DNA from: a virus
Strand: one strand, 5' to 3'
IMG/VR virus record: IMGVR_UViG_3300045136_000110
Location: 1 to 38,252 of that record
Length of the DNA: 38,252 nucleotides
Positions 15,814 through 38,252 of this stretch are shown one piece after another. Position 1 is the first letter of the stretch; every line of letters begins with the position of its first letter. The notes under the pieces were generated by a model that saw only the letters and a program-made list of their open reading frames with translations, was not told the origin of the DNA and searched no databases. Made by a program: the position numbers and the translations under genes.

Positions 15814-18027
15814 ATGCCCAAAGTACAGACGATCCAAACGAACTTCACTGCCGGCGAGCTGTCGCCGCGCTTGCGTGGGCGTGTGGACTTGCAGCGCTAC
15901 ATGAATGGCGCGTTCACACTGCTGAACTGCTACCCGGTGGTGCAGGGCGGGGCGGTGTCGCGTCCTGGCACGCTGTTTACCGGTGTGGCAAAGAATGCCA
16001 ACAAGAAGGCGCGGCTGGTGCCTTTCGTCAAGAACCGCAGCGCCAACTATGTTGTCGAGCTCGGGGATTTGTACGCGCGGGTCTACAAGGACGGCACGTT
16101 CACCGGAGCGGAAGTGGCCAGCCCGTACACCGAAGCGCAGGTGTTCGACGTGGACTATGCGCAGGATGCTGACACGATGTTTCTGGCGCATCAGTCCGTG
16201 CCGATCCAGCGGCTGCGCCGGTTCAGCGACAGCAACTGGAACGTCGCGCAGGCCCCGTTCACCACACTACCGTTCGATGAAATCGGCACCGTACCTGCCG
16301 CGACGCTCACGCTGAGCACCACGGCAGTGGGCGCCGGGCGCACGGCAAACGCTTCGGCGGGAGTGTTTTTGGCAGCAGACGTGGGCCGCGCGATTCTCTA
16401 CAACGCGGGCATTTTCGTCATCACGGCCGTGAACTCGGCCACGCAAGTCACCGGCGACATCACGATCGCCTTTGAGAGCACCAGCATACCGGTGGGCTGG
16501 AAGCTGGACGCCTCGCCTTTTACCAGCCTGACGCCGGGCGCGGCTTCGCCGGTGGGCACCTCGACATCGCTCACGCTCGGCTTGGCCGGATGGCGTAGCG
16601 AGGACGCCGGCAAATTCGTGCGCATCAATGGCGGCTTGATCAAGATCACGTCGGTGGGCAGCGCTACCGTGGCCACCGGGACGATCATCACCGCGCTTTC
16701 CGGCACCACGGCGGCACCTGCCTTGTCGTGGCAGTTGCTGGCGTCCGTGTGGAATGCGACAGATGGTTACCCGCGCACCGTCAGCCTGCATCAGCAGCGG
16801 CTCGTGGCGGCCGGCTCGCCCGGCTACCCGCAGACGATCTGGGGATCGCGCATCGGAGAATACTTGGATTTCCAGATCGGCACGAATGATAGCGAGGCGT
16901 ATTCGTTCACGCTGAGCTCGGACGAGAACAATCAGATCGCGTTCTTGAGCACCAGCCGCGACCTGATGGCGATGACCTACGGCGCGGAGTATTCGCTGCG
17001 CGGCGGCGTGGAAAAACCCATTACGCCCACCAACGTGACGATCAAGGCCGAGAGCAACCACGGCTGTGCGGGCGTGCGGCCGGTGCAGGTCAAGAAAGAT
17101 TGTGTGTTCGTGCAGCGTGCGGGCAAAAAGTTGCGCGCGCTGGGGTACCGCTACGACTTCGACGGCTATACCGCACCGGACCTGATCGCGCTGGCCGATC
17201 ACTTCACATCGAGGCTGCCTGACGGCACGCAGTTGTCGATCGTCGATATGGCGTTCCAGCAGGAGCCCGACGCGCTACTGTGGGCGGTGCGCAGCGATGG
17301 GAAGCTGCTGTCATGCACACTCGACCGCGACCCCGAAATTGCGGTGACCGGCTGGGCGCTGCATGAGATTGCCGGCGGTTTCGTCGAATCGGTCTGCACC
17401 GTGCCCAATGCCACTGCCGAAGCGGTGTATCTGCTGGTGCAGCGCACCGTCAACGGGCAAAACGTGCGCTACATCGAGCGCCTGGAGATGACGACGACGA
17501 GCACGCGCGCCAGTGAAGTCAACCTCGCGCAACTGGACTGTGCGGTGATGCTTTACAACGCGGGCGGCGCAACTGTGTGGCAACACCCGCAATTGGTCAA
17601 CACGCAAGTGCAGGTGCTGGCCGATGGCGCCTACATGGGCACATTCACAACTGACAACGCAGGCAACGTCACACTGCCGCGAACGGCCTACAGCGTGCAG
17701 ATTGGCTTGGGTTTCGTGGCCAAAGTCGTGCCGGTGACGCCGGAAGTGGGCACGCAAAGCGGAACGTCGTTCGGGCAGTCCATGTCCACCAGCCGCATCG
17801 TCGCCAGTTTCCTGAACACCGGGCCGTGCACCATCAACGGGCAGCCGCTCACGTTCCAGTCGTTCGGAGCAAACCTGCTGGACAAGCCGCCGCCGATTTT
17901 CACCGGCGTTGTTGAAATTAGCGACAGTGGCTGGGCGGACGGCGAAAGCACGCTGACGTTCACACGCGACTTGCCGTTTCCATTCCATTTGCGCGCGGTA
18001 GTGCGCGATTTCACGGTGAACGCATGA
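15814..18027 (+). CDS. Tail tubular protein B (nozzle, gp12-like)
   Basis: 737 aa. The N-terminus has NFTAGELSPRLRGRVDLQRYMNG..., then NCYPVVQGGAVSRPGT, a hallmark of podovirus nozzle proteins. YPRTVSLHQQRLVAAGSP near 325-342 and GSRIGEYLDF confirm this. The rest is beta-rich repeat structure. Six copies form the nozzle at the end of the short tail, which docks the fibres. It follows tail tubular A as in T7 and BPP-1. Confidence 0.9.
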   Translation: MPKVQTIQTNFTAGELSPRLRGRVDLQRYMNGAFTLLNCYPVVQGGAVSRPGTLFTGVAKNANKKARLVPFVKNRSANYVVELGDLYARVYKDGTFTGAEVASPYTEAQVFDVDYAQDADTMFLAHQSVPIQRLRRFSDSNWNVAQAPFTTLPFDEIGTVPAATLTLSTTAVGAGRTANASAGVFLAADVGRAILYNAGIFVITAVNSATQVTGDITIAFESTSIPVGWKLDASPFTSLTPGAASPVGTSTSLTLGLAGWRSEDAGKFVRINGGLIKITSVGSATVATGTIITALSGTTAAPALSWQLLASVWNATDGYPRTVSLHQQRLVAAGSPGYPQTIWGSRIGEYLDFQIGTNDSEAYSFTLSSDENNQIAFLSTSRDLMAMTYGAEYSLRGGVEKPITPTNVTIKAESNHGCAGVRPVQVKKDCVFVQRAGKKLRALGYRYDFDGYTAPDLIALADHFTSRLPDGTQLSIVDMAFQQEPDALLWAVRSDGKLLSCTLDRDPEIAVTGWALHEIAGGFVESVCTVPNATAEAVYLLVQRTVNGQNVRYIERLEMTTTSTRASEVNLAQLDCAVMLYNAGGATVWQHPQLVNTQVQVLADGAYMGTFTTDNAGNVTLPRTAYSVQIGLGFVAKVVPVTPEVGTQSGTSFGQSMSTSRIVASFLNTGPCTINGQPLTFQSFGANLLDKPPPIFTGVVEISDSGWADGESTLTFTRDLPFPFHLRAVVRDFTVNA

Positions 18028-18494
18028 CACAGCTGCGACTAGCGCCCATTTCTGAGGCGGCCATCGTTGAAGTGCTGGCCAACCTCAGCGCGGACGACGC
18101 GCAGGAACTGCATGCCGCGGGCATTGCCGACGCGCATGCCGAGTTCGTGCGCGCGGCATGTCTGGCGACTTACGCTGGCGCCTGCTACGCCGAGCAGCAG
18201 TGCATTGCCGTGTTCGGCGTGACGCCGCACCCTAACGATCCGGCCGTAGGCATCTGCTGGATGATCGGCACCGAGGGTGTCAAGCAGCACCCGCGACAAT
18301 GGATGCGCTTGTCGCACAGCGTGGTGCGCATCATGCAGCGCCATGCGGTGGTGTTGCTGAACCTGGTGTACTGCGGCCACGCGCGCGCGATCCGCTGGCT
18401 CGAGTGTCTAGGCTTTACGCTGCACCGCGATCAACCCTGCGGGCCGGGCGGGGCGTTCATTCCGTTTGTGATGCAGGGGGCTGCCGATGTGTGA
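18024..18494 (+). CDS. Internal virion protein A (gp13-like, GNAT-type fold)
   Basis: 156 aa, ATGA overlap with the nozzle gene. The pattern SEAAIVEVLANLS, AVFGVTPHPNDPAVGICWMIGT, HSVVRIMQRHAVVLLNLVYCGHARAIRWLECLGF is that of the T7 gp13 family, whose fold resembles GNAT acetyltransferases. Gp13 acts in virion assembly rather than acetylation, so an enzymatic role should not be assumed. Confidence 0.75.
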   Translation: MTQLRLAPISEAAIVEVLANLSADDAQELHAAGIADAHAEFVRAACLATYAGACYAEQQCIAVFGVTPHPNDPAVGICWMIGTEGVKQHPRQWMRLSHSVVRIMQRHAVVLLNLVYCGHARAIRWLECLGFTLHRDQPCGPGGAFIPFVMQGAADV

Positions 18495-18993
18495 TCCGAC
18501 AACCATCCTGATCGGCAGCACGGCCATGCAAGCCGTGGGGCAGATTCAGCAAGGCAACGCAGCCAACTCCCAGGCGCAATACGAGGCGGGGCAACTGGCC
18601 ATGAGCGCCGGGCAGGAAATGGACGCGGCCAAGCAAAAGGCCAAGATCATCCGGCGCCAAACCGAAGCGCAGCGCAGTGCGGCGGTGGCGGCGCAGGCGG
18701 CCAGCGGCGTGAAGATCGGCGAGGGTTCGGCGCTGGAGGCTGAGCGCGCCATCGTGACGGCTGGCGAGGAGGACGCGTTCATGACGCTGCTGACAGGCCA
18801 GCGCCGCTACGATCAACTAGCGCAGCAAGCCGCAATGACGCGCCGTGCGGGGGTCAATGCGCAGTACGGCGGTTATATGAACGCGGCGGGCACGGTGTTG
18901 AATGCCTACGGTGAGTACACCCGTTGGGGCGCAAAGCGCGAGCAGATCGCGCAGAGCGGCCCGCCGCAAGGCGGCACCAGGAGGGGCTTGTAA
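18487..18993 (+). CDS. Internal virion protein B (gp14-like)
   Basis: 168 aa. MCDPTTILIGSTAMQAVGQI is a short hydrophobic start. It is followed by a long Ala/Gln helix (AQYEAGQLAMSAGQEMDAAKQKAKIIRRQ...) and SGVKIGEGSALEAERAIVTAGEEDAF. This is the recognised layout of T7 gp14-type proteins, which are ejected into the host outer membrane at infection to make the DNA channel. Position after gp13-like and before gp15-like genes fits. Confidence 0.8.
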   Translation: MCDPTTILIGSTAMQAVGQIQQGNAANSQAQYEAGQLAMSAGQEMDAAKQKAKIIRRQTEAQRSAAVAAQAASGVKIGEGSALEAERAIVTAGEEDAFMTLLTGQRRYDQLAQQAAMTRRAGVNAQYGGYMNAAGTVLNAYGEYTRWGAKREQIAQSGPPQGGTRRGL

Positions 18994-21032
18994 TGGCCAA
19001 GGTCATCGTCCCGCCAGGCGGCGACACGATCGCCGCGCCTACGTCGCCCATGAATGCGCCTGCTGGCGCGTTCGAGCGCGGCAACGGATTGGTGCAGCTG
19101 GGGCGGGTAGGCGCGCAATATGCCACCGAAGTGATGGACGATCAATTGCGCCGCGAGGAGCAGCAGGCGCATGTGGCACGCAAAATTGCAGCGGTCAACG
19201 CCAAGGTGGGAATTGACAACACCATCAATGACCTGACAGACAAGTACCGCAACGGACTGCGCGACAACACGATCAGCCCGGACGTGGCGCAGGCCGATTT
19301 CACGAAAGAAGCGCAAGCGGCGGTAGCCGAGGCGACGAAAAACCTGCACTCGGAAGATGCGGCATTGATTCGCGCCGAAGCGCAGGGGCGCGTGGGCTTG
19401 GGCGCCAATCACGTCGGCGATGCGGTTGTGGCGTACAACCAGCGCACGGTGCTGACCGGGCTGCTGACGGCAGAAGAGCAGTACCAGCGCTTGGCGCAGA
19501 CCGACATCGGCAAAGCAGAGAAAGAGTACCTGCAGACGCTCAACATTCTGGGCCCGCAGGCGGGCTTGCAGCCGAATCAAATTGCCGAGCGTGCGCAGAA
19601 GTTCCGCGAAAACATCTGGTACACCAAGGGTTACGCATTGGTGTCGGCGGCGCGCGATGATCGCAAGGCGCTGCGCGATGCCGAGCGGCAGTTGCTGTCG
19701 CCGCAGTTTGACGCCATTGACCCGCAGCGCAAGGCGGTACTGCTGGATCGCGTGAATGCCTATGGGTTTCGGCTCGATCAGCAAGCCGAGCTCGCGGCGC
19801 AGCGCGCGCAGCGCGAATGGGAGCGCCGGCTCAAGCAAGCCGAGGCCGTGACCAATACTTTCCAGGCGATGGCCGACAAGGGTACGGTGCTGGATCCCAA
19901 TTACATCGATCAAGCCATGCAGGCAACGCAGGGCACACCGTACCAAGCGGCGATCGTCGCAATGGCCAAGCAAGCACGTGAAGTGGGCGGCTTGGCAGCG
20001 CAACCGATTGTGATACAGCAGCGGGCGCTAGACGAAATCAACGCACTGATTGCGCAGCGCGGGCGCAGCCCCGATCTGGATCGGCGCAAAGATCAGATAG
20101 AGCGCGCGCTGCGCGGCAGCGTGACCGATGCCAAGATTGACCCGCTGCGTGCCGGCTTGGAACGCGGCGTGATTACTGACTTGAAGCCGCTGGACTTGTC
20201 TGGCGGCATCGGCGGCATCGTGACGCAACTGCGCGACCGCGTCCCGCTGGCACAGCGCGTGAGCGTATGGGCTGGCAAGCCCGTGTCGCCGCTGACCGAG
20301 GACGAAGCGGCAACACTCAAGACGCAGATGGATGCGCTGCCGGCCAAGGAGCGATCAGCCGTGGTGTCCTCTATCGCTGCGGTCGTCGGGCCAGACTCGG
20401 CGCAGGGCATGGCCGCGCAGCTCAATGGCAAGGACAAGGCACTGGCGCTTGCGTTTGCCTATGCTGGGCAGAAAACGACGGCCGGGCGCTTTACGTCCGA
20501 GTTGCTGCTCAAGGGGCAGCAGGCGCAAAAGGACGGCACGAGCACGCGAAACGAAAAGCAGCCCGAGCTGAAGGTGCAGCAGTGGTCAGCGCACATTGCC
20601 GACGAACTGCAGGACGTTTACCCCGCGCAGACGCTGACCGATCAGACGCGCGAGGCGGCACTGCTGATCGCCCATGGCATCGCCTCGGAGGCGGGCGGCC
20701 AGTTGAGCAAGAATGATCTCGACCGCGCGGTGCGCCTGGCCATTGGCGGCAGCATCGTGGAGTACAACGGTAGAAAGGTGCCACTGCCTGGGGGCGTAAG
20801 CGAGGATACGTTCAACCAGCGGCTGCGCTCGGTCAGTGCCGACGAGCTGCGCAAGCAGGCGCCGGAAGGCAAGGTCATCGCCGGCGGCGTGGCAGTGCCG
20901 GTGGAGGAGTTCGTCAAGACGCTGCCAGGCCAGCAATATCTCTATGCCGGGCCCGGCCGATACGCCGTGCTGGTCGGTGGCCGTCCTGTGCTGAACGCGC
21001 AGCGCAAACCCGTCATCATCGGAGTGCAGTGA
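18993..21032 (+). CDS. Internal virion protein C (gp15-like ejection protein)
   Basis: 679 aa. The start ATG shares a base with the preceding TAA (TAATG), behind GGAGGGG. Almost all helical and Ala/Gln/Arg-rich, starting MAKVIVPPGGDTIAAP and continuing with long charged helices (QLGRVGAQYATEVMDDQLRR). Such proteins build the periplasmic tube of the T7 ejectosome. The C-terminus (GGVAVPVEEFVKTLPGQQYL, GRYAVLVGGRPV) is a small beta domain. Assigned by order and composition more than by a named motif. Confidence 0.75.
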   Translation: MAKVIVPPGGDTIAAPTSPMNAPAGAFERGNGLVQLGRVGAQYATEVMDDQLRREEQQAHVARKIAAVNAKVGIDNTINDLTDKYRNGLRDNTISPDVAQADFTKEAQAAVAEATKNLHSEDAALIRAEAQGRVGLGANHVGDAVVAYNQRTVLTGLLTAEEQYQRLAQTDIGKAEKEYLQTLNILGPQAGLQPNQIAERAQKFRENIWYTKGYALVSAARDDRKALRDAERQLLSPQFDAIDPQRKAVLLDRVNAYGFRLDQQAELAAQRAQREWERRLKQAEAVTNTFQAMADKGTVLDPNYIDQAMQATQGTPYQAAIVAMAKQAREVGGLAAQPIVIQQRALDEINALIAQRGRSPDLDRRKDQIERALRGSVTDAKIDPLRAGLERGVITDLKPLDLSGGIGGIVTQLRDRVPLAQRVSVWAGKPVSPLTEDEAATLKTQMDALPAKERSAVVSSIAAVVGPDSAQGMAAQLNGKDKALALAFAYAGQKTTAGRFTSELLLKGQQAQKDGTSTRNEKQPELKVQQWSAHIADELQDVYPAQTLTDQTREAALLIAHGIASEAGGQLSKNDLDRAVRLAIGGSIVEYNGRKVPLPGGVSEDTFNQRLRSVSADELRKQAPEGKVIAGGVAVPVEEFVKTLPGQQYLYAGPGRYAVLVGGRPVLNAQRKPVIIGVQ

Positions 21033-21033
21033 T

Positions 21034-23178
21034 ATGGCACTGGGTGACCTCTACCAAGGCGATGTCGACTTGTCGCTGGCACAGATGGCGGCAGCCCCCA
21101 TCGATCCGCCAAAGCCTGAGAGTCGCAATTGGTTTCGCGCGGCTTACGATTCGTTGCGCGGCCACGTCGGCGCGAAGACCGCTGCGTCCGTGCTCGAGCT
21201 GGGCGCTGCAATCGGGCCCGGCATGGTCGCGGATCTGGACAATTCGGCGCTTGACCAAGCCAAGAAGCCACTGAGCTTTCGCCAAAACGAGCAGAGCAAG
21301 CCGTTTCGGGACTTCGAGAAAACGCTGCGGCCCGATCCGCTGACGTCCAGCAAAGCGGAACAGATCATCTACAACACGGTCGGGCCGCTGGCGTCTATCG
21401 CCAGTGGTATGGTGCTCGGCGGCCTTCCCGGTTTGGCCGCGGCGGCGGCCGAACAGGGGTTTTCTCAGTCGGAAGACTTGGCGCAGCAGGGGGTGGACCT
21501 CAAGACGCGCACGGCAATCGGCACACTCACCGCCGGTGTCAATACCGCCATGGGTGTCGTGCCGATGGCAGGCCCCACGCTGAAGGCGACGGCCGGGCTG
21601 TACCTGCTCAGCGGCCCGGGTGCGTTCATGGCGCAGCAACAGGCCACGCGCTCGATCTTGGAGCATGCCGATTATGGCGAACTGGCCAAGCAGTACGATC
21701 CGCTTGACCCGACGGGCTTGGCGATTTCGGCGTTGCTGCCCGCGCCGTTCGCCGCCCTGGGTGCCGCGCGCAACATCCGCGCCGGCAAAACAGCCGCGGC
21801 AACGGCCAAAACCGCCCCGCCACAAGGCGATCGCGCCCCGGTCAATGCCGACACCCCTGCGCCGGAGAAAACGCCGCCTGTAGCCCCGCCTGAGCTGGTA
21901 GACGCGGCGATGACGCACAACCTGACGTTGCAGGCCGACGCCGCCGTCGCCGCGACTGCGTTGCCCAGCGCAGGTGCGGCGCGCGTACCACGGTCGCCCG
22001 ATCTGACTTCGACGCAGCGCGCTATAGAAACGCGCTTGGCCGAAAAAGTCGGCGGCAACTTTGACCAAGCCGCGAAAGAGTACGCCGCGTTGCCGGAATC
22101 CCGCGGCGGCAAGGTGCTCAACACCGACATTGCGCGCGAGTTGTCGCCGGACTACTTGGCCGATCGCACGCAGTCTGCGGCCGTGCATGAGCCGGCCAGC
22201 TGGTTCATGAAACAGCTGTATGCGCAAAAGCTGGCCGAGCCACCCAAGCCGGGTGAGGCGCCGCTGGTGTTTTTCACGGCGGGCGGCACGGGCGCGGGCA
22301 AGACGACCGCCATCAGTTCGATTGATAGTGTCAAGGGTATAAGCGATAAAGCGCAAATAATCTACGACACGAACATGAATACTTACGACAGTGCACGCGC
22401 AAAGGTCGATCAGGCGCTGGCGGCCGGCAAAGACGTGCGCATTGCCTTGGTCGTGCGCGACCCGGTAGATGCTTTGGTTAATGGCGCGCTGCCGCGAGCC
22501 ATGCGTCAAGAGCAGCAGTTCGGGTCCGGACGCACCGTGCCGTTGGGTGACCACGCGGATACGCATGCCGGTGCGTTGCTGACGGTCCAGCGCTTGGCGC
22601 AAGAGTTTGCGGGCGACCCGCGGGTAAGAGTATTTGCGATCGACAACAACTTCGGCAAAGGCCATGCCCGCGTAGTTGATCTGGATAAGGTGAAACCCTA
22701 TACTGTGGATGTCGAAGCGTTGCAAGCGGCGCTCGCCAAGGAGTACGCCAGTGGCCGCATCTCAAAAGCTGTCTACGAAGGTTTCAGTGCCCGGCAGAAC
22801 GCCCGAGCAGCAAGCGCTGATCGAGGAATTCGACCGCAAGATCGGCCAGGAGCTGGTGGACAACCTCAACCGGCACGCAGCGAGGGCGCGGGAGCAGGCG
22901 CAGATGCCGCCCCAGCCGCCTCAGGTCAAGTAGCTCAGCAACCCGCGGGCGCATCTGCGCCCCCGCTCGATCCTCACGTCCAGTCCGTCATCGATCGCGT
23001 GCGCGCGGTCGAGCTCGAGCGCCCCGATCTCCCCGTCGCAGAAGGTCAGACGGCTGCGCAGTTCCTTGCCGACGTGCGCCGCGAGGCGCTGGAGGGCACC
23101 GACACCGAGCTGGGCGCCGCCGACGCGCAGTTACTCAAGGTCGCCGCAGATTGCGCGCTGGCTATGGGGACGGTATGA
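21034..23178 (+). CDS. Internal virion protein carrying a zeta-toxin-like kinase domain
   Basis: 714 aa. Residues 1-250 are virion-protein-like, with Ala/Gly-rich hydrophobic segments (ASIASGMVLGGLPGLAAAAA at about 130-150). A linker follows. Residues 340-590 resemble zeta/PezT-type P-loop kinases: LNTDIARELSPDY before the P loop, FFTAGGTGAGKTTAISS with Walker A lysine at 423, IIYDTNMNTY, then ALVVRDPVDALVNGALPRAM. Zeta enzymes phosphorylate UDP-sugars and poison peptidoglycan synthesis. An acidic C-terminal domain (about 640-714) ends TELGAADAQLLKVAADCA. Its place among ejected proteins suggests delivery into the host. Kinase activity and substrate are unknown, and no epsilon antitoxin is seen. 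Confidence 0.78.
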   Translation: MALGDLYQGDVDLSLAQMAAAPIDPPKPESRNWFRAAYDSLRGHVGAKTAASVLELGAAIGPGMVADLDNSALDQAKKPLSFRQNEQSKPFRDFEKTLRPDPLTSSKAEQIIYNTVGPLASIASGMVLGGLPGLAAAAAEQGFSQSEDLAQQGVDLKTRTAIGTLTAGVNTAMGVVPMAGPTLKATAGLYLLSGPGAFMAQQQATRSILEHADYGELAKQYDPLDPTGLAISALLPAPFAALGAARNIRAGKTAAATAKTAPPQGDRAPVNADTPAPEKTPPVAPPELVDAAMTHNLTLQADAAVAATALPSAGAARVPRSPDLTSTQRAIETRLAEKVGGNFDQAAKEYAALPESRGGKVLNTDIARELSPDYLADRTQSAAVHEPASWFMKQLYAQKLAEPPKPGEAPLVFFTAGGTGAGKTTAISSIDSVKGISDKAQIIYDTNMNTYDSARAKVDQALAAGKDVRIALVVRDPVDALVNGALPRAMRQEQQFGSGRTVPLGDHADTHAGALLTVQRLAQEFAGDPRVRVFAIDNNFGKGHARVVDLDKVKPYTVDVEALQAALAKEYASGRISKAVYEGFSARQNARAASADRGIRPQDRPGAGGQPQPARSEGAGAGADAAPAASGQVAQQPAGASAPPLDPHVQSVIDRVRAVELERPDLPVAEGQTAAQFLADVRREALEGTDTELGAADAQLLKVAADCALAMGTV
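22787..22933 (+). CDS. Overlapping 48-aa ORF inside the kinase gene (+1 frame)
   Basis: GTG start with GAAGG 6 nt upstream. The product, PGRTPEQQALIEEFDRK, continuing IGQELVDNLNRHAARAR and ending PPQPPQVK, has the look of a real helical protein. The main frame over the same bases is a low-complexity Ala/Gly/Arg linker. It may be an independent small gene, the true end of the kinase protein reached by a +1 shift, or a fossil of an earlier gene end. It needs direct evidence. Confidence 0.4.
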   Translation: MPGRTPEQQALIEEFDRKIGQELVDNLNRHAARAREQAQMPPQPPQVK

Positions 23179-23362
23179 GGCTGACGACGATGAGAAACAG
23201 CACCGCGCCAGCTACCAGCATGATGACGATGCCGCGTGCCCAGTCGCGCCAGTACCGGCGTGCAAGCTTCCAACTGCCCGTTGCCGCCAGCCCAGCCAGT
23301 AGCGGAACGCACAGCATGATGCCCAGGGCACCCAGGAACCAAAGGAGCTGATCCGTGGTCAT
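23162..23362 (-). CDS. Antisense two-pass membrane protein
   Basis: 66 aa from ATG (MTTDQLLWFLGALG...). Two clear hydrophobic segments, LLWFLGALGIMLCVPLLAGL (6-25) and GIVIMLVAGAVLFLIVVSLI (44-63), flank a basic loop rich in Trp/Arg (SWKLARRYWRDWARG). It lies in the 176-bp gap between two internal-virion genes, on the opposite strand, overlapping them by 17 and 8 bp. Codon use and the membrane pattern argue for a real gene; the sense-strand frames across the gap are unconvincing. There is no strong Shine-Dalgarno and only a weak upstream promoter-like pair (TTGCCG/GATACA). It could be a moron-type lysogeny gene acting at the host membrane. Confidence 0.6.
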   Translation of the reverse strand: MTTDQLLWFLGALGIMLCVPLLAGLAATGSWKLARRYWRDWARGIVIMLVAGAVLFLIVVSLIPSP

Positions 23363-25892
23363 GAAGGCGGAATGTATCTCAGCCGTGCGCGCCGCGGCAA
23401 GTGGCCGGCCGATCAGCGACGCCAAGCTGCAAGCCATGGAAGACGCCATCAGCGCGCAAATGCGCGAACTGGCGCGGCAGGATCGCGCGCGCTGGCAGGG
23501 CTTGTCGCGTGACCAGCGCGTTGCCGAAGCCACGGCAAAGGCGATGGAGAAATTGCAGGCCGACGCCGCGCTGAAGGAATACCGCGCGGGATTGCAGGTG
23601 CTTCGAGCCGCAGAAACCGAGGCGCGCGTGGCGCAACTCACGCAGCTGACGGGCGCCAACCGCTCGCATGGCTTGGTGCAAGACATCGAAAACACGCACG
23701 ACTATGTGCATGCCGTGCGCAACGAGAGCATCGCCGACTTGCGTGACTTCATGGATGCGGCCGAATCCAAAGACGGCACCGGCGTGCTGCGTAACCTGGC
23801 GATGCGCGTGTTCGACTTGGACAACCCGCAGATGACGGCCGACATCGTGCGCGAGATATTCCGCAACGCGGATGGTTTCACGGGAAACAAGGCGGCGCAG
23901 AAGGCGGCGCAGGCGTGGCTGGATACCATCGAGCGGATGCGCCAGCGATTCAATGCGGCGGGCGGCAGCATCGGGAAGCTCGGCTATGGTTATCTGTCTC
24001 AAGCGCATGATGTCGTGCGCATCCGGGAGATAGGCGCACAAGTATGGGCCGAAAGGGTGTTGCCGCTGCTGGATCGGGAGCAGTATGTGCGGCCAGACGG
24101 CTTGCTGATGAATGATGCCGAGCTGCGCGATATGCTCATTGCGGCGCACGAAACCATCGTCACCGGCGGCGCGAACAAAACCGAGGCGGGCCAGTTCAAG
24201 GGTGCAGGTGCGCGCGCCAACCGCGGCAGCGATCATCGCGTGATTCACTTTCGCGACGGCGATGCGTGGATGGAATACATGCGCGATTTTGGCGAGGGCT
24301 CGCTGTACGACGCGATGCTGGGCCACATCGGCCATATGGCGCGCGACATCGGGCTGGTCGAGCGCTACGGCCCGAACCCGGAACAGACGTTTCGCGTGCA
24401 GAACGACATTGCCCAGCGCGCTGATGGCCAAGGCACGGCGGCCAACCGCGTCGCGGGCAACACGCCGCAAGCGTACTGGGACATTGTGAACGGCAAGACC
24501 GGCTTGCCGGAAAACCGCATCATCGCGCGCATAGGCCAAGACCTGCGCAACGTTCAGACAGCGGCCAAGCTCGGCGGCGCGGTGCTCTCCAGCACGACCG
24601 ACGTAGCAACCGTCGCCGCGGCGTTGCACTACAACCGGCTGTCGTATTTCGCCATGCTGCAAAACCTGGGGCGGCGCCTCAAGCCCGGCAGCGAAGAGCG
24701 CGATTTCCTGATGGCGCATGCCATCATCGGCGAATCGCTGGCCGGCACGCTCAACCGTTGGACGGGCGACAACATGACGCACAGCCTGACGGGGCGCACG
24801 GCCGCTAGCGTGATGAAGCTGCAGTTCCTAAATGCGTGGTCGGATGGGTTGCGGCAGGCGTTTGCCGCCACCATGATGCAGGGCTTCACCAAGAAGCTGG
24901 GTAAGGCTTGGGGCCAATTGGATGAATGGGATCGCTATCTGATGCAGCGCAAGGGCATCGGCGAAGATGATTGGGCCATCATCACCCAGGCCAAGCCGAC
25001 CGAGCGCAATGGCAACCTGTACTTGACGCGCGACGCAGTGGCTGGCGTGGATGCGCCTGGCGCGCAGCAGGCGGCCAGCAAGTGGCTTGCCTTTGTCAAT
25101 GACGAATCGCAGTTCGCGGTGATCAACCCGGACATGGCCACGCGCGCGATCGTCACGGCCGGCGGCATGCCCGCAGGCACGATCAGGGGTGAAGCGGCGC
25201 GGTGCTTCTGGCAGTTCAAGAGCTTCCCGCTGGCAATGCTGACGCGGCATTGGCGGCGCGTGTTCGAGACGCCGCAAGGCTTGGAGGGCGCGCCGCTGGG
25301 CTATGGTGCGCAATCAAAGCTGGGCGCGCGCGTCAATCAGGTGGCCGTGCTGGCCGGCCTCAACGTGACGCTGATGATGATCGGCGCGCTGGTGATGCAG
25401 AACAAGGCGCTGGTGCAGGGCAAGGACCCCTACGACATGACGATGGGCCGGTTCTGGATGCGCGCGATGGCGCAAGGAGGGGGTGCTGGCTACGTCGGCG
25501 ATCTGCTGTTCAAAGACCCGACCGAGGTAAGCGGCAGCAACATCGAGCAGGGCGTGGGCAGCGTGGCCGGTCCGGTGGCGGGCGCAGTAGCCGGGCTGGT
25601 GGGTGACTTGGGCGTGGTCAATGCGTGGCAGGCCGCCAAGGGCAAGGACACGAAGATCGCCGCCGAGTCGCTGCGCTGGGCCAACTCGCAGTTGCCCTAC
25701 GTTGGCTTGTGGCAAACACGCGCGGCGTGGGAGCACTGGTTTTTGCACAACGCTCAGGAGGCGGTCAATCCGGGCTACTTGCAGCGCATGCAGCGCAAGG
25801 CAATGAAGGATTGGGGGCAGGCGTATTACTGGGCACCGGGTCAAGCGTTACCGGATCGCGCGCCAGATTGGGCGCATGCTGTGGGAGAGTGA
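23355..25892 (+). CDS. Large internal virion/ejection protein
   Basis: 845 aa. The GTG start is preferred because AAAGGAG lies 7 nt before it; the ATG two codons later is 13 nt away. The protein is helical and charged in its first 150 residues. It then has conserved blocks ENTHDYVHAVRNESIADL, FNAAGGSIGKLGYGYLSQAHD, WAERVLPLLDREQYV and AAKLGGAVLSSTTDVATVAA, and a hydrophobic C-terminal part (VNQVAVLAGLNVTLMMIGAL) that could enter the inner membrane. These blocks occur at the C-terminus of large podovirus ejection proteins, in the position of T7 gp16. No lytic transglycosylase motif was recognised. It would leave the virion with the DNA and cross the cell envelope. Confidence 0.8.
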   Translation: MVMKAECISAVRAAASGRPISDAKLQAMEDAISAQMRELARQDRARWQGLSRDQRVAEATAKAMEKLQADAALKEYRAGLQVLRAAETEARVAQLTQLTGANRSHGLVQDIENTHDYVHAVRNESIADLRDFMDAAESKDGTGVLRNLAMRVFDLDNPQMTADIVREIFRNADGFTGNKAAQKAAQAWLDTIERMRQRFNAAGGSIGKLGYGYLSQAHDVVRIREIGAQVWAERVLPLLDREQYVRPDGLLMNDAELRDMLIAAHETIVTGGANKTEAGQFKGAGARANRGSDHRVIHFRDGDAWMEYMRDFGEGSLYDAMLGHIGHMARDIGLVERYGPNPEQTFRVQNDIAQRADGQGTAANRVAGNTPQAYWDIVNGKTGLPENRIIARIGQDLRNVQTAAKLGGAVLSSTTDVATVAAALHYNRLSYFAMLQNLGRRLKPGSEERDFLMAHAIIGESLAGTLNRWTGDNMTHSLTGRTAASVMKLQFLNAWSDGLRQAFAATMMQGFTKKLGKAWGQLDEWDRYLMQRKGIGEDDWAIITQAKPTERNGNLYLTRDAVAGVDAPGAQQAASKWLAFVNDESQFAVINPDMATRAIVTAGGMPAGTIRGEAARCFWQFKSFPLAMLTRHWRRVFETPQGLEGAPLGYGAQSKLGARVNQVAVLAGLNVTLMMIGALVMQNKALVQGKDPYDMTMGRFWMRAMAQGGGAGYVGDLLFKDPTEVSGSNIEQGVGSVAGPVAGAVAGLVGDLGVVNAWQAAKGKDTKIAAESLRWANSQLPYVGLWQTRAAWEHWFLHNAQEAVNPGYLQRMQRKAMKDWGQAYYWAPGQALPDRAPDWAHAVGE

Positions 25893-35140: not shown

Positions 35141-36133
35141 CTACAGACGTTCTGCGAGCTGCGCGGCGGTGGGGTTGACGTACACCAGCGCAAACTTGGG
35201 GTCGCGCCAGCCGAACACGCTGCAAAACTCCGGGAAGCTGAGCTTGCCCGGCTGGCCGACGCTGCGGCCGATGCGCGTGGCCGCGGTGTGCCGCGCGTCG
35301 TGGAATGTGCAGTCGAGCAGGCCGGCACGGAGGCGGGCCTTGCGAAACAGCGCATCGCGCGTCTGTGCGCTCACTGGCAGCGGTTTGTCCAAGCCGCGCA
35401 ACCGCTCGATCAGTCGCCGTGCCCGCCGCGACAGCGGCACATCGCGGGCCGTGCCGTTCTTGGTTTCGGGCAGCGTCACCCACGCGCCCTGCACGGCCGG
35501 CCAGGTTAGCCCCAGCAGTTCCCCGGCGCGCATGCCGGTGTGCAGCGACAGCAAGAACGCATAGGCCACCACCTGCTGCATGCTGAGGGGCGGCTGGCCG
35601 GGCCGGTAGCCGAGCTGCCGCAGGATGGCCCGGATCTCGCGCCAGGTGAACACGCGGGTGCGGTGTTTGGGCTGCGCAGGCCTGCGCAGGTTCTCGAGCG
35701 GGTTGTGCGTGAGCCAGCCCCAGTCGCGGCAGTGCCTGAATAGACTGGACAGTAGCGACAGCTCGCGCAGCACGGTGCCGTCGGTGACCTGGGTGCGCCG
35801 CCGTGCCTGCCAGTCCGACAGGATGCGCGAATCGAGCCTGCCCAACGGCAGCGCCAGCGGCAGCTCGTGCGTGCGCAGGAAGGCCGCGATGCGCACCTGC
35901 TCCCAGCGCGCGCCCTTGTGCTCGGGCGAAACCTCCCGCGCATAGCGCTCTAGCGCCTCCCTGAGCGTGCGAAACTCGCTCGCCCGGCCCTCGGCCTCCT
36001 GCAGCAGTTCCATGCGCCTGCGGTCGGCCCAGAGCTGCGCATCGGCCTTCCTGGCGAACACCTTGCTCTCGCGCTGCCCGCGAACATAGACGAGCGCTCG
36101 CCAGCCGTCGCGGTGCTTGATGATCGAGGGCAT
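35141..36133 (-). CDS. int: Tyrosine integrase
   Basis: 330 aa. The N-terminal part (MPSIIKHRDGWRALVYVRGQRESKVFARKADAQLWADRR) is the short beta arm-binding domain. A core-binding helical domain lies at about 55-145. The catalytic domain has R202 in HTGMRAGELLGLTW, K225 in LPETKNGTARDVPLS, H278 and R281 in FHDARHTAATR, W309 in FGWRD and nucleophile Y318 in FALVYVNPT. It recombines attP with the tRNA-Thr 3' end. The gene lies beside attR, reading away from it. There is no purine-rich ribosome site before the ATG, and the 130-bp leader is full of inverted repeats. Confidence 0.95.
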   Translation of the reverse strand: MPSIIKHRDGWRALVYVRGQRESKVFARKADAQLWADRRRMELLQEAEGRASEFRTLREALERYAREVSPEHKGARWEQVRIAAFLRTHELPLALPLGRLDSRILSDWQARRRTQVTDGTVLRELSLLSSLFRHCRDWGWLTHNPLENLRRPAQPKHRTRVFTWREIRAILRQLGYRPGQPPLSMQQVVAYAFLLSLHTGMRAGELLGLTWPAVQGAWVTLPETKNGTARDVPLSRRARRLIERLRGLDKPLPVSAQTRDALFRKARLRAGLLDCTFHDARHTAATRIGRSVGQPGKLSFPEFCSVFGWRDPKFALVYVNPTAAQLAERL

Positions 36134-36263
36134 GCGTAAAACCGTGCGCAGCGGGTGAGTAATGACGCTGCGGATTGTGCGGTTTTGAGGAAGAATCAGG
36201 TCGTAGGAAAACCCCTGATTTACCTATGAAAAGCCGCGTTGCACGGAAAGACGCGGAAAGGCT
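36134..36263 (-). promoter_or_regulatory. Right prophage arm and int leader with three inverted repeats
   Basis: There are three inverted repeats: AAAACCG/CGGTTTT with inner GCAGC/GCTGC (36138..36186); AATCAGG/CCTGATT (36194..36220); CCGCGT/ACGCGG (36234..36256). Read on the minus strand, the last is followed by CTTTT and could terminate the tRNA-Thr transcript. GTGAGTAAT (36155..36163) repeats the left-arm copy at 158..166. Probably integrase/excisionase arm sites plus control of int. Confidence 0.5.
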
Positions 36264-36282
36264 GTGGTGCCGGAAATAGGAG
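36264..36282. repeat. attR core, 19-bp repeat
   Basis: Identical to attL at 109..127. It lies at the 3' end of the tRNA-Thr gene (minus strand), so the phage-supplied core restores the tRNA exactly. Confidence 0.93.
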
Positions 36283-36340
36283 TCGAACCTACGACCTTCG
36301 CATTACGAATGCGCTGCTCTACCAACTGAGCTATTCCGGC
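36265..36340 (-). tRNA. tRNA-Thr(CGT)
   Basis: 76 nt including an encoded CCA. The minus-strand sequence starts GCCGGAATAGCTCAG, has anticodon CGT in the loop of CATTCGTAATG, T arm GGTTCGACTCC, and ends TTTCCGGCACCA. The acceptor stem pairs GCCGGAA with TTTCCGGC, allowing one mismatch or wobble. It is the integration target and is left functional. Confidence 0.95.
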
Positions 36341-36361
36341 CCGCTATGCGTCGAATACATG

Positions 36362-36370
36362 ATTTTAGCA
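36362..36370 (-). promoter_or_regulatory. Extended -10 of the tRNA-Thr promoter
   Basis: TGCTAAAAT on the minus strand is an extended -10 about 22 bp before the tRNA 5' end. The -35 region is GC-rich and not clear. In the lysogen this promoter points through attR toward int. Confidence 0.55.
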
Positions 36371-36401
36371 AAGCCCGGCGCGGCGCCGCGAAGCGGTGCG
36401 C

Positions 36402-37163
36402 TCAACTTGCCTCGGGCGCCATGAAGCCGCCGCTGCGATAGGTCAGCACCAGCGTGTCGCGGCAGGCGGGCAGGCCGGCGCGGCGGATCGGCGTGGTCTC
36501 ATGCACCACACGCCGGTCGTCCAGCAGCATCAGCGCGAGCGGTTCGGCGAGTGTCGTCTGCAGCAGCGGCCGGCGGTCAGCGTCGTAAATCGTGGTGGCG
36601 CCGCCTTCGACGCCTTCGCGGCGCACCAGCAGCAGCGCGACGAAATCCACGCCGTCGCGGTGCGCGCCTTCGGGCGTGGGCTTGCCGACCTCTGTGCTGG
36701 CGTCGATGCGGAACTGATGCGCCTCGATGAACCACTGCGGCTGCGGCGCAAGCGCGGCGAACAGCGCGCCGAGACGGGCGATCAGCGCCTGCGTCAGCGG
36801 CAGCTGCCACCACGCGCCGTCGATCGGCTCGAACCAGCGCAGGATGCCGCCGTGCAGCGCGTTGTAGGTGGTGGGCTGATAGTGCGGCCGGTGCGCGGCG
36901 CGTTGCAGGCGGTGCGCGGCGGTGTCGAAGGTGGCGCTCGCATGGCGGCGGAAGCGGTAACGCCCGCCGTCCTTCAGGTAGCGGTCGGGCGGCAGCGCAT
37001 CCCAGTACGAGGCCCAAGCCTGCACCGTCGCGGCATCGACGGCCAGGGCCTCGCGCAGCGCGGCAGGCTCGACCAGCGCGAAGCCGTCACGCGACAGTGC
37101 CGCGCCCGCTTCGCGCAGGCCGGGCGCATCGAGGGCATTCGCGTCGCGCTGCATCGTCGGCAC
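36402..37163 (-). CDS. 2OG-Fe dioxygenase family protein
   Basis: 253 aa from a GTG, or 250 from the ATG three codons later; neither has a clear ribosome site. The iron-binding HxD is in EGAHRDGVDF, and the distal His/Arg region is RRVVHETTPIRRAG. IDASTEVGKPTPEGAHRDG and GGATTIYDADRRPL are typical of the family that includes L-isoleucine dioxygenase and BsmA-like proteins. They hydroxylate small substrates using 2-oxoglutarate and Fe(II). The substrate cannot be predicted. Host gene. Confidence 0.75.
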   Translation of the reverse strand: MPTMQRDANALDAPGLREAGAALSRDGFALVEPAALREALAVDAATVQAWASYWDALPPDRYLKDGGRYRFRRHASATFDTAAHRLQRAAHRPHYQPTTYNALHGGILRWFEPIDGAWWQLPLTQALIARLGALFAALAPQPQWFIEAHQFRIDASTEVGKPTPEGAHRDGVDFVALLLVRREGVEGGATTIYDADRRPLLQTTLAEPLALMLLDDRRVVHETTPIRRAGLPACRDTLVLTYRSGGFMAPEAS

Positions 37164-37192
37164 CGTTTCGTCGAGGCGTTGCGGCCAGCGCT

Positions 37193-38203
37193 TCAGGCCG
37201 CCGCGGCGTGATAGGCCGTGACGCGCTCGACCTCGTTCTTCGAGCCGAGGATCACGCTGACGCGCTCATGCAGCCTTTGCGGCGCGATGTCGAGGATGCG
37301 CTGTTGCCCGTTGGTCGCCGCGCCGCCCGCCTGCTCGACGATGAAACTCATCGGATTGGCCTCGTACATCAGCCGCAGCTTGCCGGGCTTGTCGGGTTCG
37401 CGCTTGTCCCAGGGGTACATGAAGATGCCGCCGCGCGACAGGATGCGGTGCACATCGGCCACCATGCTCGCGATCCAGCGCATGTTGAAGTCCTTGCCGC
37501 GCGGCCCCTCCTTGCCCTGCAGGCACTCGTCGATATAGCGCCTGACAGGCGGCGCCCAGTGGCGCATGTTGCTCATGTTGATCGCGAACTCCTTCGTGTC
37601 CTCCGGAATTCGCACCTGGTCGGCGGTGAGCACGAACGAGCCTTGCTCGCGGTCGAGCGTGAACATCGCCACGCCGTTGCCCACGGTGAGCACCAGCGTC
37701 GTTTGCGGGCCATAGACGCAATAACCTGCGGCCACCTGTTGCCGGCCGGGCTGCAGGAAGTCGATCTCCTCGACGCCGGCATCGTTGTCGAGCTTCTTCA
37801 GCACGCTGAAGATCGTGCCGATGCTGACGTTGACGTCGATGTTCGACGAGCCGTCCAGCGGATCGAACAGCAGCAGGTACTCGCCTTGCGGATAGCGGTT
37901 GGGCACGACATAGATGCCGTCCATCTCCTCGCTGGCCATTGCCGCGAGCGCGCCGCCCCATTCATTGGCCTCGATCAGCACCTCGTTGGCGATGATGTCG
38001 AGCTTCTTCTGCACCTCGCCCTGCACATTCTCGGTTTCTGCGCTGCCTAATACATCCCCCAGTGCACCCTTGTTCACGGATATCGATATGCGCTTGCAGG
38101 CGCGTGCTACCACCTCTATCAGCAGCCGCAGTTGCGGCGTGATGGTGCCGTGCTCGCGTTGCTGCTCCACCAGATACTGCGTCAGGCTGATGCGCTTGCC
38201 CAT
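37193..38203 (-). CDS. fbp: Fructose-1,6-bisphosphatase, class I
   Basis: 336 aa from the ATG of [11 protein letters not shown], with GGAGG 8 nt upstream; a TTG two codons earlier is less likely. The metal-site motif [20 protein letters not shown] is intact, preceded by [11 protein letters not shown] with acidic ligands. [22 protein letters not shown] and [15 protein letters not shown] are the class I C-terminal blocks. It hydrolyses fructose-1,6-bisphosphate to fructose-6-phosphate in gluconeogenesis or the Calvin cycle. The N-terminus [22 protein letters not shown] is typical of Burkholderiales. Host gene. Confidence 0.95.
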
Positions 38204-38205
38204 GC

Positions 38206-38252
38206 TCAAGCCTCCAGTGCGCGCTGCACGATCTCGCGCGTGTCGGCCGACA
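38206..38252 (-). CDS. C-terminal end of upstream gene, probably aminopeptidase N
   Basis: Only 14 codons are in the window: [14 protein letters not shown], then TGA. The stop lies two bases before the fbp ATG. The ending resembles the last helix of PepN, and pepN-fbp adjacency is common in Burkholderiales, but the fragment is too short to be sure. Confidence 0.45.

What the first reader, a model, noticed from the sequence alone, without database searches (positions are those of the whole stretch)
21034..23178. Zeta-toxin-like kinase domain inside a virion (ejected) protein
The protein sits between the gp15-like and gp16-like ejection proteins and has virion-like N- and C-terminal regions. 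Its middle carries a P-loop kinase with GGTGAGKTT (Walker A K423) and the LNTDIARE and VVRDPVDALVNG surroundings of zeta/PezT enzymes. A kinase that phosphorylates a nucleotide sugar, delivered with the DNA, could alter cell-wall precursors at infection, poison co-resident phages, or modify a host factor. No antitoxin is recognisable. Ejected proteins with enzymatic cargo are known in other phages; this particular combination seems little described.
Basis: partly seen in the sequence, partly recalled or inferred. Interest (0 to 1): 0.68.

Follow-up and report, generated by a model that had tools for sequence, protein, structure and literature searches.

The report
Wall-precursor kinase inside phage ejection protein
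A temperate short-tailed phage carries, inside one of the proteins it probably shoots into the cell with its DNA, an enzyme module built like the gonococcal zeta toxin that sabotages cell-wall building blocks; the module is common in uncultured phages, sits in a position where related phages carry other enzymes, and I found no experimental test of it in a phage.

Summary
ORF 21034-23178 (+) encodes 714 aa. Residues 325-588 form a confident P-loop kinase (pLDDT 95) whose best match by profile (E 7.6e-18) and by fold (Z 27, 2.4 A over 247 residues) is the gonococcal zeta toxin ng_zeta1. Canonical zeta and PezT match far less well (Z 10-11). As in ng_zeta1, the catalytic-Asp block lies before the P-loop, so 'zeta/PezT-like' should read 'ng_zeta1-type'. 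D365, K423, R488 and R500 are invariant in 70 phage domains. At least 283 viral contigs hold relatives, but only one of 50,697 deposited phage records. The host protein fills the epsilon15 gp16 slot of the ejection operon. In related phages that slot carries a lytic transglycosylase, ddrB-ParB, an ADP-ribosyltransferase, kinase plus ddrB-ParB, or nothing. So it is a swappable cargo cassette of a polyvalent-type protein. Zeta kinases in phage and plasmid polyvalent proteins were already predicted (Iyer 2017), so this is a new variant of a known kind. Most likely the kinase is delivered with the DNA and phosphorylates UDP-sugar wall precursors. Delivery and substrate are inferred. Adjacent genes offer no antitoxin. 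A bonus find is a conserved antisense two-helix membrane-protein gene beside it (23162-23362, minus strand).

The parts
21034..23178 (+). Ejection-slot (epsilon15 gp16-slot) protein carrying the kinase, 714 aa
   Evidence: homology to BcepC6B gp16 at 41% over 173 aa and to relatives in the same slot
21034..21813 (+). N-terminal helical virion scaffold (residues 1-260), shared with phages that lack the kinase
   Evidence: PHROG 1145 at residues 92-338; 50% identity over 214 aa to the cargo-free L107 protein; helical in the full-length model
22006..22797 (+). ng_zeta1-type kinase domain (residues 325-588)
22126..22128 (+). D365, aligned with catalytic base Asp56 of ng_zeta1, N-terminal to the P-loop
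   Evidence: Alignment; invariant 70/70 (though a search pattern favours this site)
22282..22308 (+). Walker A GGTGAGKTT, K423 aligned with Lys115 of ng_zeta1
22495..22533 (+). R488 and R500, invariant arginines in the region of ng_zeta1 Arg175/Arg181
   Evidence: Both 70/70; exact pairing with Arg175/Arg181 not settled by the sequence alignments
22966..23175 (+). C-terminal tail (about residues 645-714), shared with kinase-free slot proteins
18993..21032 (+). gp15-like internal virion protein (start codon not certain)
   Evidence: Relatives in L006 (55%) and of BcepC6B gp15 in the same position
18024..18494 (+). Internal virion protein, PHROG 308
18487..18993 (+). gp14-like internal virion protein, PHROG 418
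23355..25892 (+). gp16-like / epsilon15 gp17-like virion structural protein, PHROG 684
23162..23362 (-). Conserved antisense ORF, 66 aa, two predicted membrane helices; a neighbour, not part of the kinase
35141..36133 (-). Integrase; the phage is temperate
   Evidence: PHROG 1, E 5.5e-42
36265..36340 (-). tRNA-Thr, probable attachment site, followed by host genes

Best explanation
The protein is a component of the ejection machine of an epsilon15/BcepC6B-like temperate podovirus. It consists of a helical N-terminal scaffold and a short C-terminal tail that dock it in the virion, and between them, on flexible linkers, an enzyme cargo: a catalytically intact ng_zeta1-type kinase. Made late and packaged with the gp15-like and gp16-like proteins, it is released into the cell at infection. 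In the cytoplasm, where ATP and UDP-sugars are, it phosphorylates a UDP-sugar peptidoglycan precursor (UDP-GlcNAc or UDP-MurNAc), making dead-end products that briefly stall wall synthesis in the newly infected cell. Shown here: fold, block order, intact catalytic residues, gene position, cargo swapping. Inferred: packaging, ejection, cytoplasmic delivery, substrate, benefit to the phage.
For: Fold: ng_zeta1 Z 27.1 over 247 of 266 residues, against 10-11 for canonical zeta and PezT; profile E 7.6e-18. Topology: the Asp block precedes the P-loop, as in ng_zeta1, whose two sequence blocks are swapped (PMC5923241). Active site: D365, R368, K423, R488 and R500 are 70/70, so the enzyme is under selection. 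Gene position: in 21 loci (the window and 20 viral contigs) the kinase-bearing ORF is directly followed by a gp16-like gene. Cargo exchange in that slot: SLT in BcepC6B; SLT + ddrB-ParB or ddrB-ParB in Piluca, MD-2021a and EcoM_APEC; kinase + ddrB-ParB in L006; ART-PolyVal in L111 and no cargo in L107. Among 34 kinase-fused proteins, ddrB-ParB is in 11, LPD22 in 4, ART-PolyVal in 2, glucosaminidase in 1. Model: confident kinase (pLDDT mostly over 90) between disordered linkers, about 261-325 and 589-645. ng_zeta1 phosphorylates UDP-GlcNAc/UDP-MurNAc and lyses E. coli, depending on its P-loop lysine (PMC5923241).
Against: No virion proteomics or ejection data for this protein. The UDP-MurNAc contact Asn75 of ng_zeta1 is Ser or Ala in the phage family and Lys59 is Arg, so the substrate may differ. 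The related fold AvrRxo1 (Z 11.6) is, from general knowledge, a NAD kinase. About 30 of the 70 domains are stand-alone proteins; those examined lie next to terminase and portal genes, where ejection is not obvious. Late expression of an active wall poison could act in the producing cell instead.
Confidence: 0.5

Rival explanations
1. Same kinase and same delivery, but the substrate is not a wall precursor: it phosphorylates another nucleotide or metabolite (for example NAD, a signalling nucleotide, or a host factor), perhaps to blunt a defence system or reprogramme metabolism.
For: Asn75/Lys59 UDP-MurNAc contacts are not kept as such (Ser/Ala381, Arg368). AvrRxo1 is the next-best fold family (Z 11.6). 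The same slot carries ART-PolyVal and ddrB-ParB in relatives, which suggests host-directed effectors in general.
Against: The closest fold by a wide margin is a UDP-sugar kinase; the Asp, Lys and Arg catalytic set is conserved.
Confidence: 0.27
2. The kinase acts late, in the cell that makes the phage: it halts wall synthesis to assist lysis or to block wall repair, and its presence in the virion is incidental or structural.
For: The gene sits in the late operon. Stand-alone relatives are also in late packaging modules. ng_zeta1 expression lyses E. coli (PMC5923241).
Against: The kinase is repeatedly built into ejection-slot proteins at the place where SLT, ddrB-ParB or ART domains sit in relatives, which points to delivery; this phage also has a lysis gene of its own (Rz-like spanin).
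Confidence: 0.15
3. The domain is a dead structural relic of a captured toxin.
For: L107 shows that the slot protein can lack any recognised cargo.
Against: All catalytic residues are invariant in 70 domains spread over several architectures.
Confidence: 0.03
4. It is the toxin of a phage toxin-antitoxin pair.
For: Pfam Zeta_toxin family.
Against: Neighbours are virion genes; the only small neighbour, the antisense membrane ORF, is equally present where the kinase is absent (L107, L109, L111).
Confidence: 0.02

Closest known systems
ng_zeta1 of Neisseria gonorrhoeae (epsilon_1/zeta_1; PDB 6EPG, 6EPH, 6EPI; PMC5923241)
   Same: Fold (Z 27), swapped block order with the catalytic Asp before the P-loop, P-loop Lys and base Asp
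   Different: No OB domain and no adjacent antitoxin; embedded in a phage virion-type protein; Asn75/Lys59 replaced by Ser or Ala/Arg; 19% identity
Zeta-toxin-like kinases in polyvalent proteins (Iyer 2017, PMC5512222)
   Same: Zeta-like kinase in multidomain proteins of phages and conjugative elements, with partners such as ddrB-ParB and ART; wall-weakening role proposed there
   Different: There reported fused to MuF domains in phages and in proteins of conjugative elements; here in the ejection-operon slot of epsilon15-like podoviruses and of the ng_zeta1 topology
Burkholderia phage BcepC6B gp16 and the epsilon15/phiV10 gp16-slot proteins
   Same: Same slot between gp15-like and gp17-like genes; shared N-terminal scaffold with BcepC6B (41% over 173 aa)
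   Different: Cargo is an SLT transglycosylase (BcepC6B) or no recognised domain (phiV10) instead of the kinase
Canonical zeta / PezT toxins (PDB 1GVN, 3Q8X, 2P5T)
   Same: Related kinase fold (Z 10-11), Pfam Zeta_toxin
   Different: Block order differs; cognate epsilon/PezA antitoxin absent here
Phage T7 gp16 (ejected protein with a transglycosylase domain)
   Same: Ejection-operon protein that carries an enzyme module
   Different: Different enzyme; no homology tested or claimed for the kinase part

Membership tests
Pfam Zeta_toxin (PF06414) | Score above the curated cut-off | tested here: met
   49.5 bits against 22.3
ng_zeta1 subclass of zeta kinases | Swapped block order: catalytic Asp block before the P-loop | tested here: met
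   Colinear profile alignment; Pfam profile 38-91 missing after the P-loop; fold Z 27
ng_zeta1 subclass of zeta kinases | P-loop Lys and base Asp | tested here: met
   K423 and D365, 70/70
ng_zeta1 subclass of zeta kinases | Arg175/Arg181 phosphate patch | tested here: inconclusive
   R488 and R500 invariant, but the pairing is off by a few residues in the sequence alignments
ng_zeta1 subclass of zeta kinases | UDP-MurNAc contacts Asn75 and Lys59 | tested here: not met
   S381 (58 Ser, 12 Ala) and R368 (70/70); the other contacts were not compared
ng_zeta1 subclass of zeta kinases | C-terminal OB domain (not in all homologues of the subclass) | tested here: not met
   Residues 589-645 predicted disordered, then short helices only
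ng_zeta1 subclass of zeta kinases | Phosphorylates UDP-sugars at the C4' hydroxyl | not testable with these tools
   Needs biochemistry
epsilon/zeta toxin-antitoxin system | Cognate antitoxin gene beside the toxin | tested here: not met
   Neighbours are virion genes; the antisense ORF does not depend on the kinase
Canonical zeta/PezT | P-loop block precedes the Asp block | tested here: not met
Polyvalent proteins (Iyer 2017) | Phage late-gene context with conflict-type domains joined in one polypeptide | tested here: met
   Late context; among 34 kinase-fused proteins ddrB-ParB 11, LPD22 4, ART-PolyVal 2; the window protein itself has one recognised enzyme domain
Podovirus ejection proteins | Gene in the gp14-gp15-gp16-type operon, homologous to a known slot protein | tested here: met
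   operon order as in PMC8954989
Podovirus ejection proteins | Present in the virion and ejected | not testable with these tools
   Needs virion mass spectrometry and infection assays

The most novel reading that the evidence does not exclude
A podovirus ejection machine delivers an active ng_zeta1-type UDP-sugar kinase into the cytoplasm at infection as one of several interchangeable enzyme cargoes (kinase, ADP-ribosyltransferase, ddrB-ParB, transglycosylase), so that the phage attacks wall-precursor metabolism before any of its genes is expressed.
Probability: 0.4. Interest if true: 0.68.

Novelty: new variant of a known kind. Interest (0 to 1): 0.52.

Why it matters
If true, phages use the ejection channel to inject a metabolic poison of wall synthesis, otherwise known from toxin-antitoxin systems, and they exchange such cargoes in a fixed protein slot. 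It gives a testable system (K423A virions; the cargo-free L107-type protein as a natural control) for the open question of what ejected enzymes do in the first minutes of infection. It also places the rewired ng_zeta1 fold in a large viral reservoir (at least 283 viral contigs) that is nearly absent from isolates (one of 50,697 phage records) and rare in the bacterial genomes tried (one strong and one moderate full-domain match in 399).

Tried and rejected
Toxin-antitoxin reading: no partner gene; the antisense ORF is not linked to the kinase. The ~120-aa gene just upstream of many stand-alone kinases looked like a possible antitoxin but is DUF5856, function unknown. Canonical zeta/PezT membership: block order wrong. 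PADLOC defence models: no hit. NCBIfam: nothing near its cut-offs. Literature searches for zeta toxin together with polyvalent protein, ejection protein, virion or phage found no experimental work on such a phage protein; the library is open-access only.

Full report
What was checked. The ORF 21034-23178 (+) is real and intact: ATG start, 714 aa, beginning one base after the stop of the gp15-like gene and followed after 176 bases by the gp16-like gene. Pfam Zeta_toxin is hit at E 4.5e-13, well over the curated cut-off.

What the domain is. The Pfam match comes in two pieces, the P-loop (profile 11-37) and a later piece (92-185); the piece between, which holds the catalytic Asp block in canonical zeta toxins, is not found after the P-loop. 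It lies before it: GGKVLNTDIARELSPDY at 358-374. The same order is known from ng_zeta1 of Neisseria gonorrhoeae, where two sequence blocks are swapped in the chain but the fold is kept (PMC5923241). A profile of 65 phage domains aligns colinearly with ng_zeta1 at E 7.6e-18; no canonical zeta or PezT chain appears up to E 1. The predicted structure (pLDDT 95.1, pTM 0.91) matches ng_zeta1 at Z 27.1, rmsd 2.4 A over 247 residues; AvrRxo1 at Z 11.6, canonical zeta at 11.0 and PezT at 10.1. By alignment K423 is Lys115 and D365 is Asp56, the base of ng_zeta1 (residue roles). In 70 phage domains D365, R368, K423, R488 and R500 never vary. D365 and R368 are at or beside one of the two search patterns, so their invariance is partly due to how the set was found; K423, R488 and R500 are not. 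The exact pairing of R488/R500 with Arg175/Arg181 is not settled. Of two ng_zeta1 residues that hold the UDP-MurNAc carboxyethyl group, Asn75 becomes Ser or Ala and Lys59 becomes Arg, so the preferred substrate cannot be carried over.

What the protein is. Its N-terminal region is homologous to gp16 of Burkholderia phage BcepC6B (41% over 173 aa), which lies in the same slot between gp15 and gp17, and whose cargo is an SLT transglycosylase. The downstream neighbour is PHROG 684, homologous to the protein annotated as pilot protein in phage Piluca with reference to epsilon15 p17. In relatives of the window phage the slot protein carries the kinase plus a ddrB-ParB domain (L006, 51% identical), an ADP-ribosyltransferase of the polyvalent type (L111), a middle part that Pfam does not recognise (L109, L110), or almost nothing but scaffold and tail (L107, 382 aa). 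In deposited phages it carries SLT plus ddrB-ParB (Piluca, MD-2021a), ddrB-ParB (EcoM_APEC) or no recognised domain (66FD, YA3, YeP5, Tr60_Ab31). The full-length model shows a helical scaffold, a confident kinase and disordered linkers on both sides. This is the anatomy of a carrier with exchangeable cargo.

How widespread. A pattern scan of IMG/VR gave 283 stretches encoding relatives, of which 80 were kept. In 20 of these loci, besides the window, the kinase ORF is directly followed by a gp16-like gene (broader context). Others are fused into giant proteins of about 2,150-3,100 aa, and about 30 are stand-alone proteins of about 270-420 aa; those whose neighbours I searched lie just upstream of terminase and portal genes. 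Fused proteins share the chain with ddrB-ParB, LPD22, LPD38, ART-PolyVal and glucosaminidase, the vocabulary of polyvalent proteins (PMC5512222). On a tree of the domains the slot label needs 11 changes by parsimony, at least 4 forced by well-supported branches, so the module has moved between architectures several times (quick tree). Among 50,697 deposited phage records only one carries the domain (ctPCi537; BcepC6B matches by scaffold only).

How it probably works. The ejection operon of such podoviruses encodes proteins packed in the head and released at infection (PMC8954989; inference for this protein). A kinase needs ATP and, if it acts like ng_zeta1, UDP-sugars, both cytoplasmic; so if the cargo works at entry it must reach the cytoplasm, as an ART cargo in the same slot must to reach NAD. 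ng_zeta1 turns UDP-GlcNAc and UDP-MurNAc into dead-end 4'-phosphates and lyses E. coli, depending on its P-loop Lys. I therefore think the phage kinase most likely stalls wall-precursor synthesis in the newly infected cell. Fold, block order, catalytic residues, gene position and cargo exchange are shown; packaging, ejection, substrate and benefit are inferred. The main rivals are another substrate with the same delivery, and late action in the producing cell.

Novelty. Iyer et al. 2017 already predicted zeta-like kinases in polyvalent proteins, fused to MuF in phages, with a wall-weakening role. Environmental phage proteins annotated 'Zeta toxin domain containing protein' exist. New here, as far as the tools show, are the ng_zeta1 topology, the ejection slot of epsilon15-like podoviruses, and the direct comparison with SLT, ART, ddrB-ParB and near-empty versions of the same slot. 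Hence: new variant of a known kind.

Side finding. In the 176-base gap between the kinase gene and the gp16-like gene lies an antisense ORF of 66 aa with two hydrophobic helices. In the same gap and orientation it recurs in nine other distinct loci, including ones whose slot has no kinase, with codon position 2 changing least in most pairs; shuffled gaps give a two-helix ORF in 0 to 1.7% of trials per locus (the loci are related, so the trials are not independent). It is probably a real gene. [quoted passage not shown] It is absent (no gap) in the more distant kinase-bearing phages checked.

Noticed in passing
window 23162-23362 (-); L103, L105, L107, L109, L110, L111, L112, L043, L059: Conserved antisense ORF of about 61-73 aa with two predicted membrane helices, in the ~165-180 base gap between the slot gene and the gp16-like gene, independent of the cargo; coding-like codon-position pattern. 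Possible prophage-expressed superinfection-exclusion protein.
   Followed up: partly
window 35141-38252: Integrase, tRNA-Thr, then bacterial-type genes (2OG-Fe dioxygenase family, fructose-1,6-bisphosphatase): the window looks like a provirus with a host flank.
   Followed up: partly
L036, L044, L047, L052, L057, L062, L079 and others: Stand-alone kinases of about 300-360 aa lie upstream of terminase and portal genes, often after a ~120-aa gene that is DUF5856 where tested.
   Followed up: partly
L105 328-4824: The slot protein is split: scaffold part, then an inserted 448-aa gene of unknown family, then a separate ORF with the conserved C-terminal tail.
   Followed up: no
L111 3017-4813: Same slot carries an ART-PolyVal ADP-ribosyltransferase (E 4.9e-22) in place of the kinase.
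   Followed up: yes
BFVD A0A2R8FDL0: A 279-aa cedratvirus (giant virus) P-loop protein matches the model over nearly its whole length (TM 0.82/0.79), so the rewired zeta fold may also occur in giant viruses.
   Followed up: no
L003 10150-12786 (MW202577): ctPCi537 protein annotated 'thymidylate kinase' is an 878-aa protein with a C-terminal zeta-type kinase; the annotation is probably wrong.
   Followed up: partly
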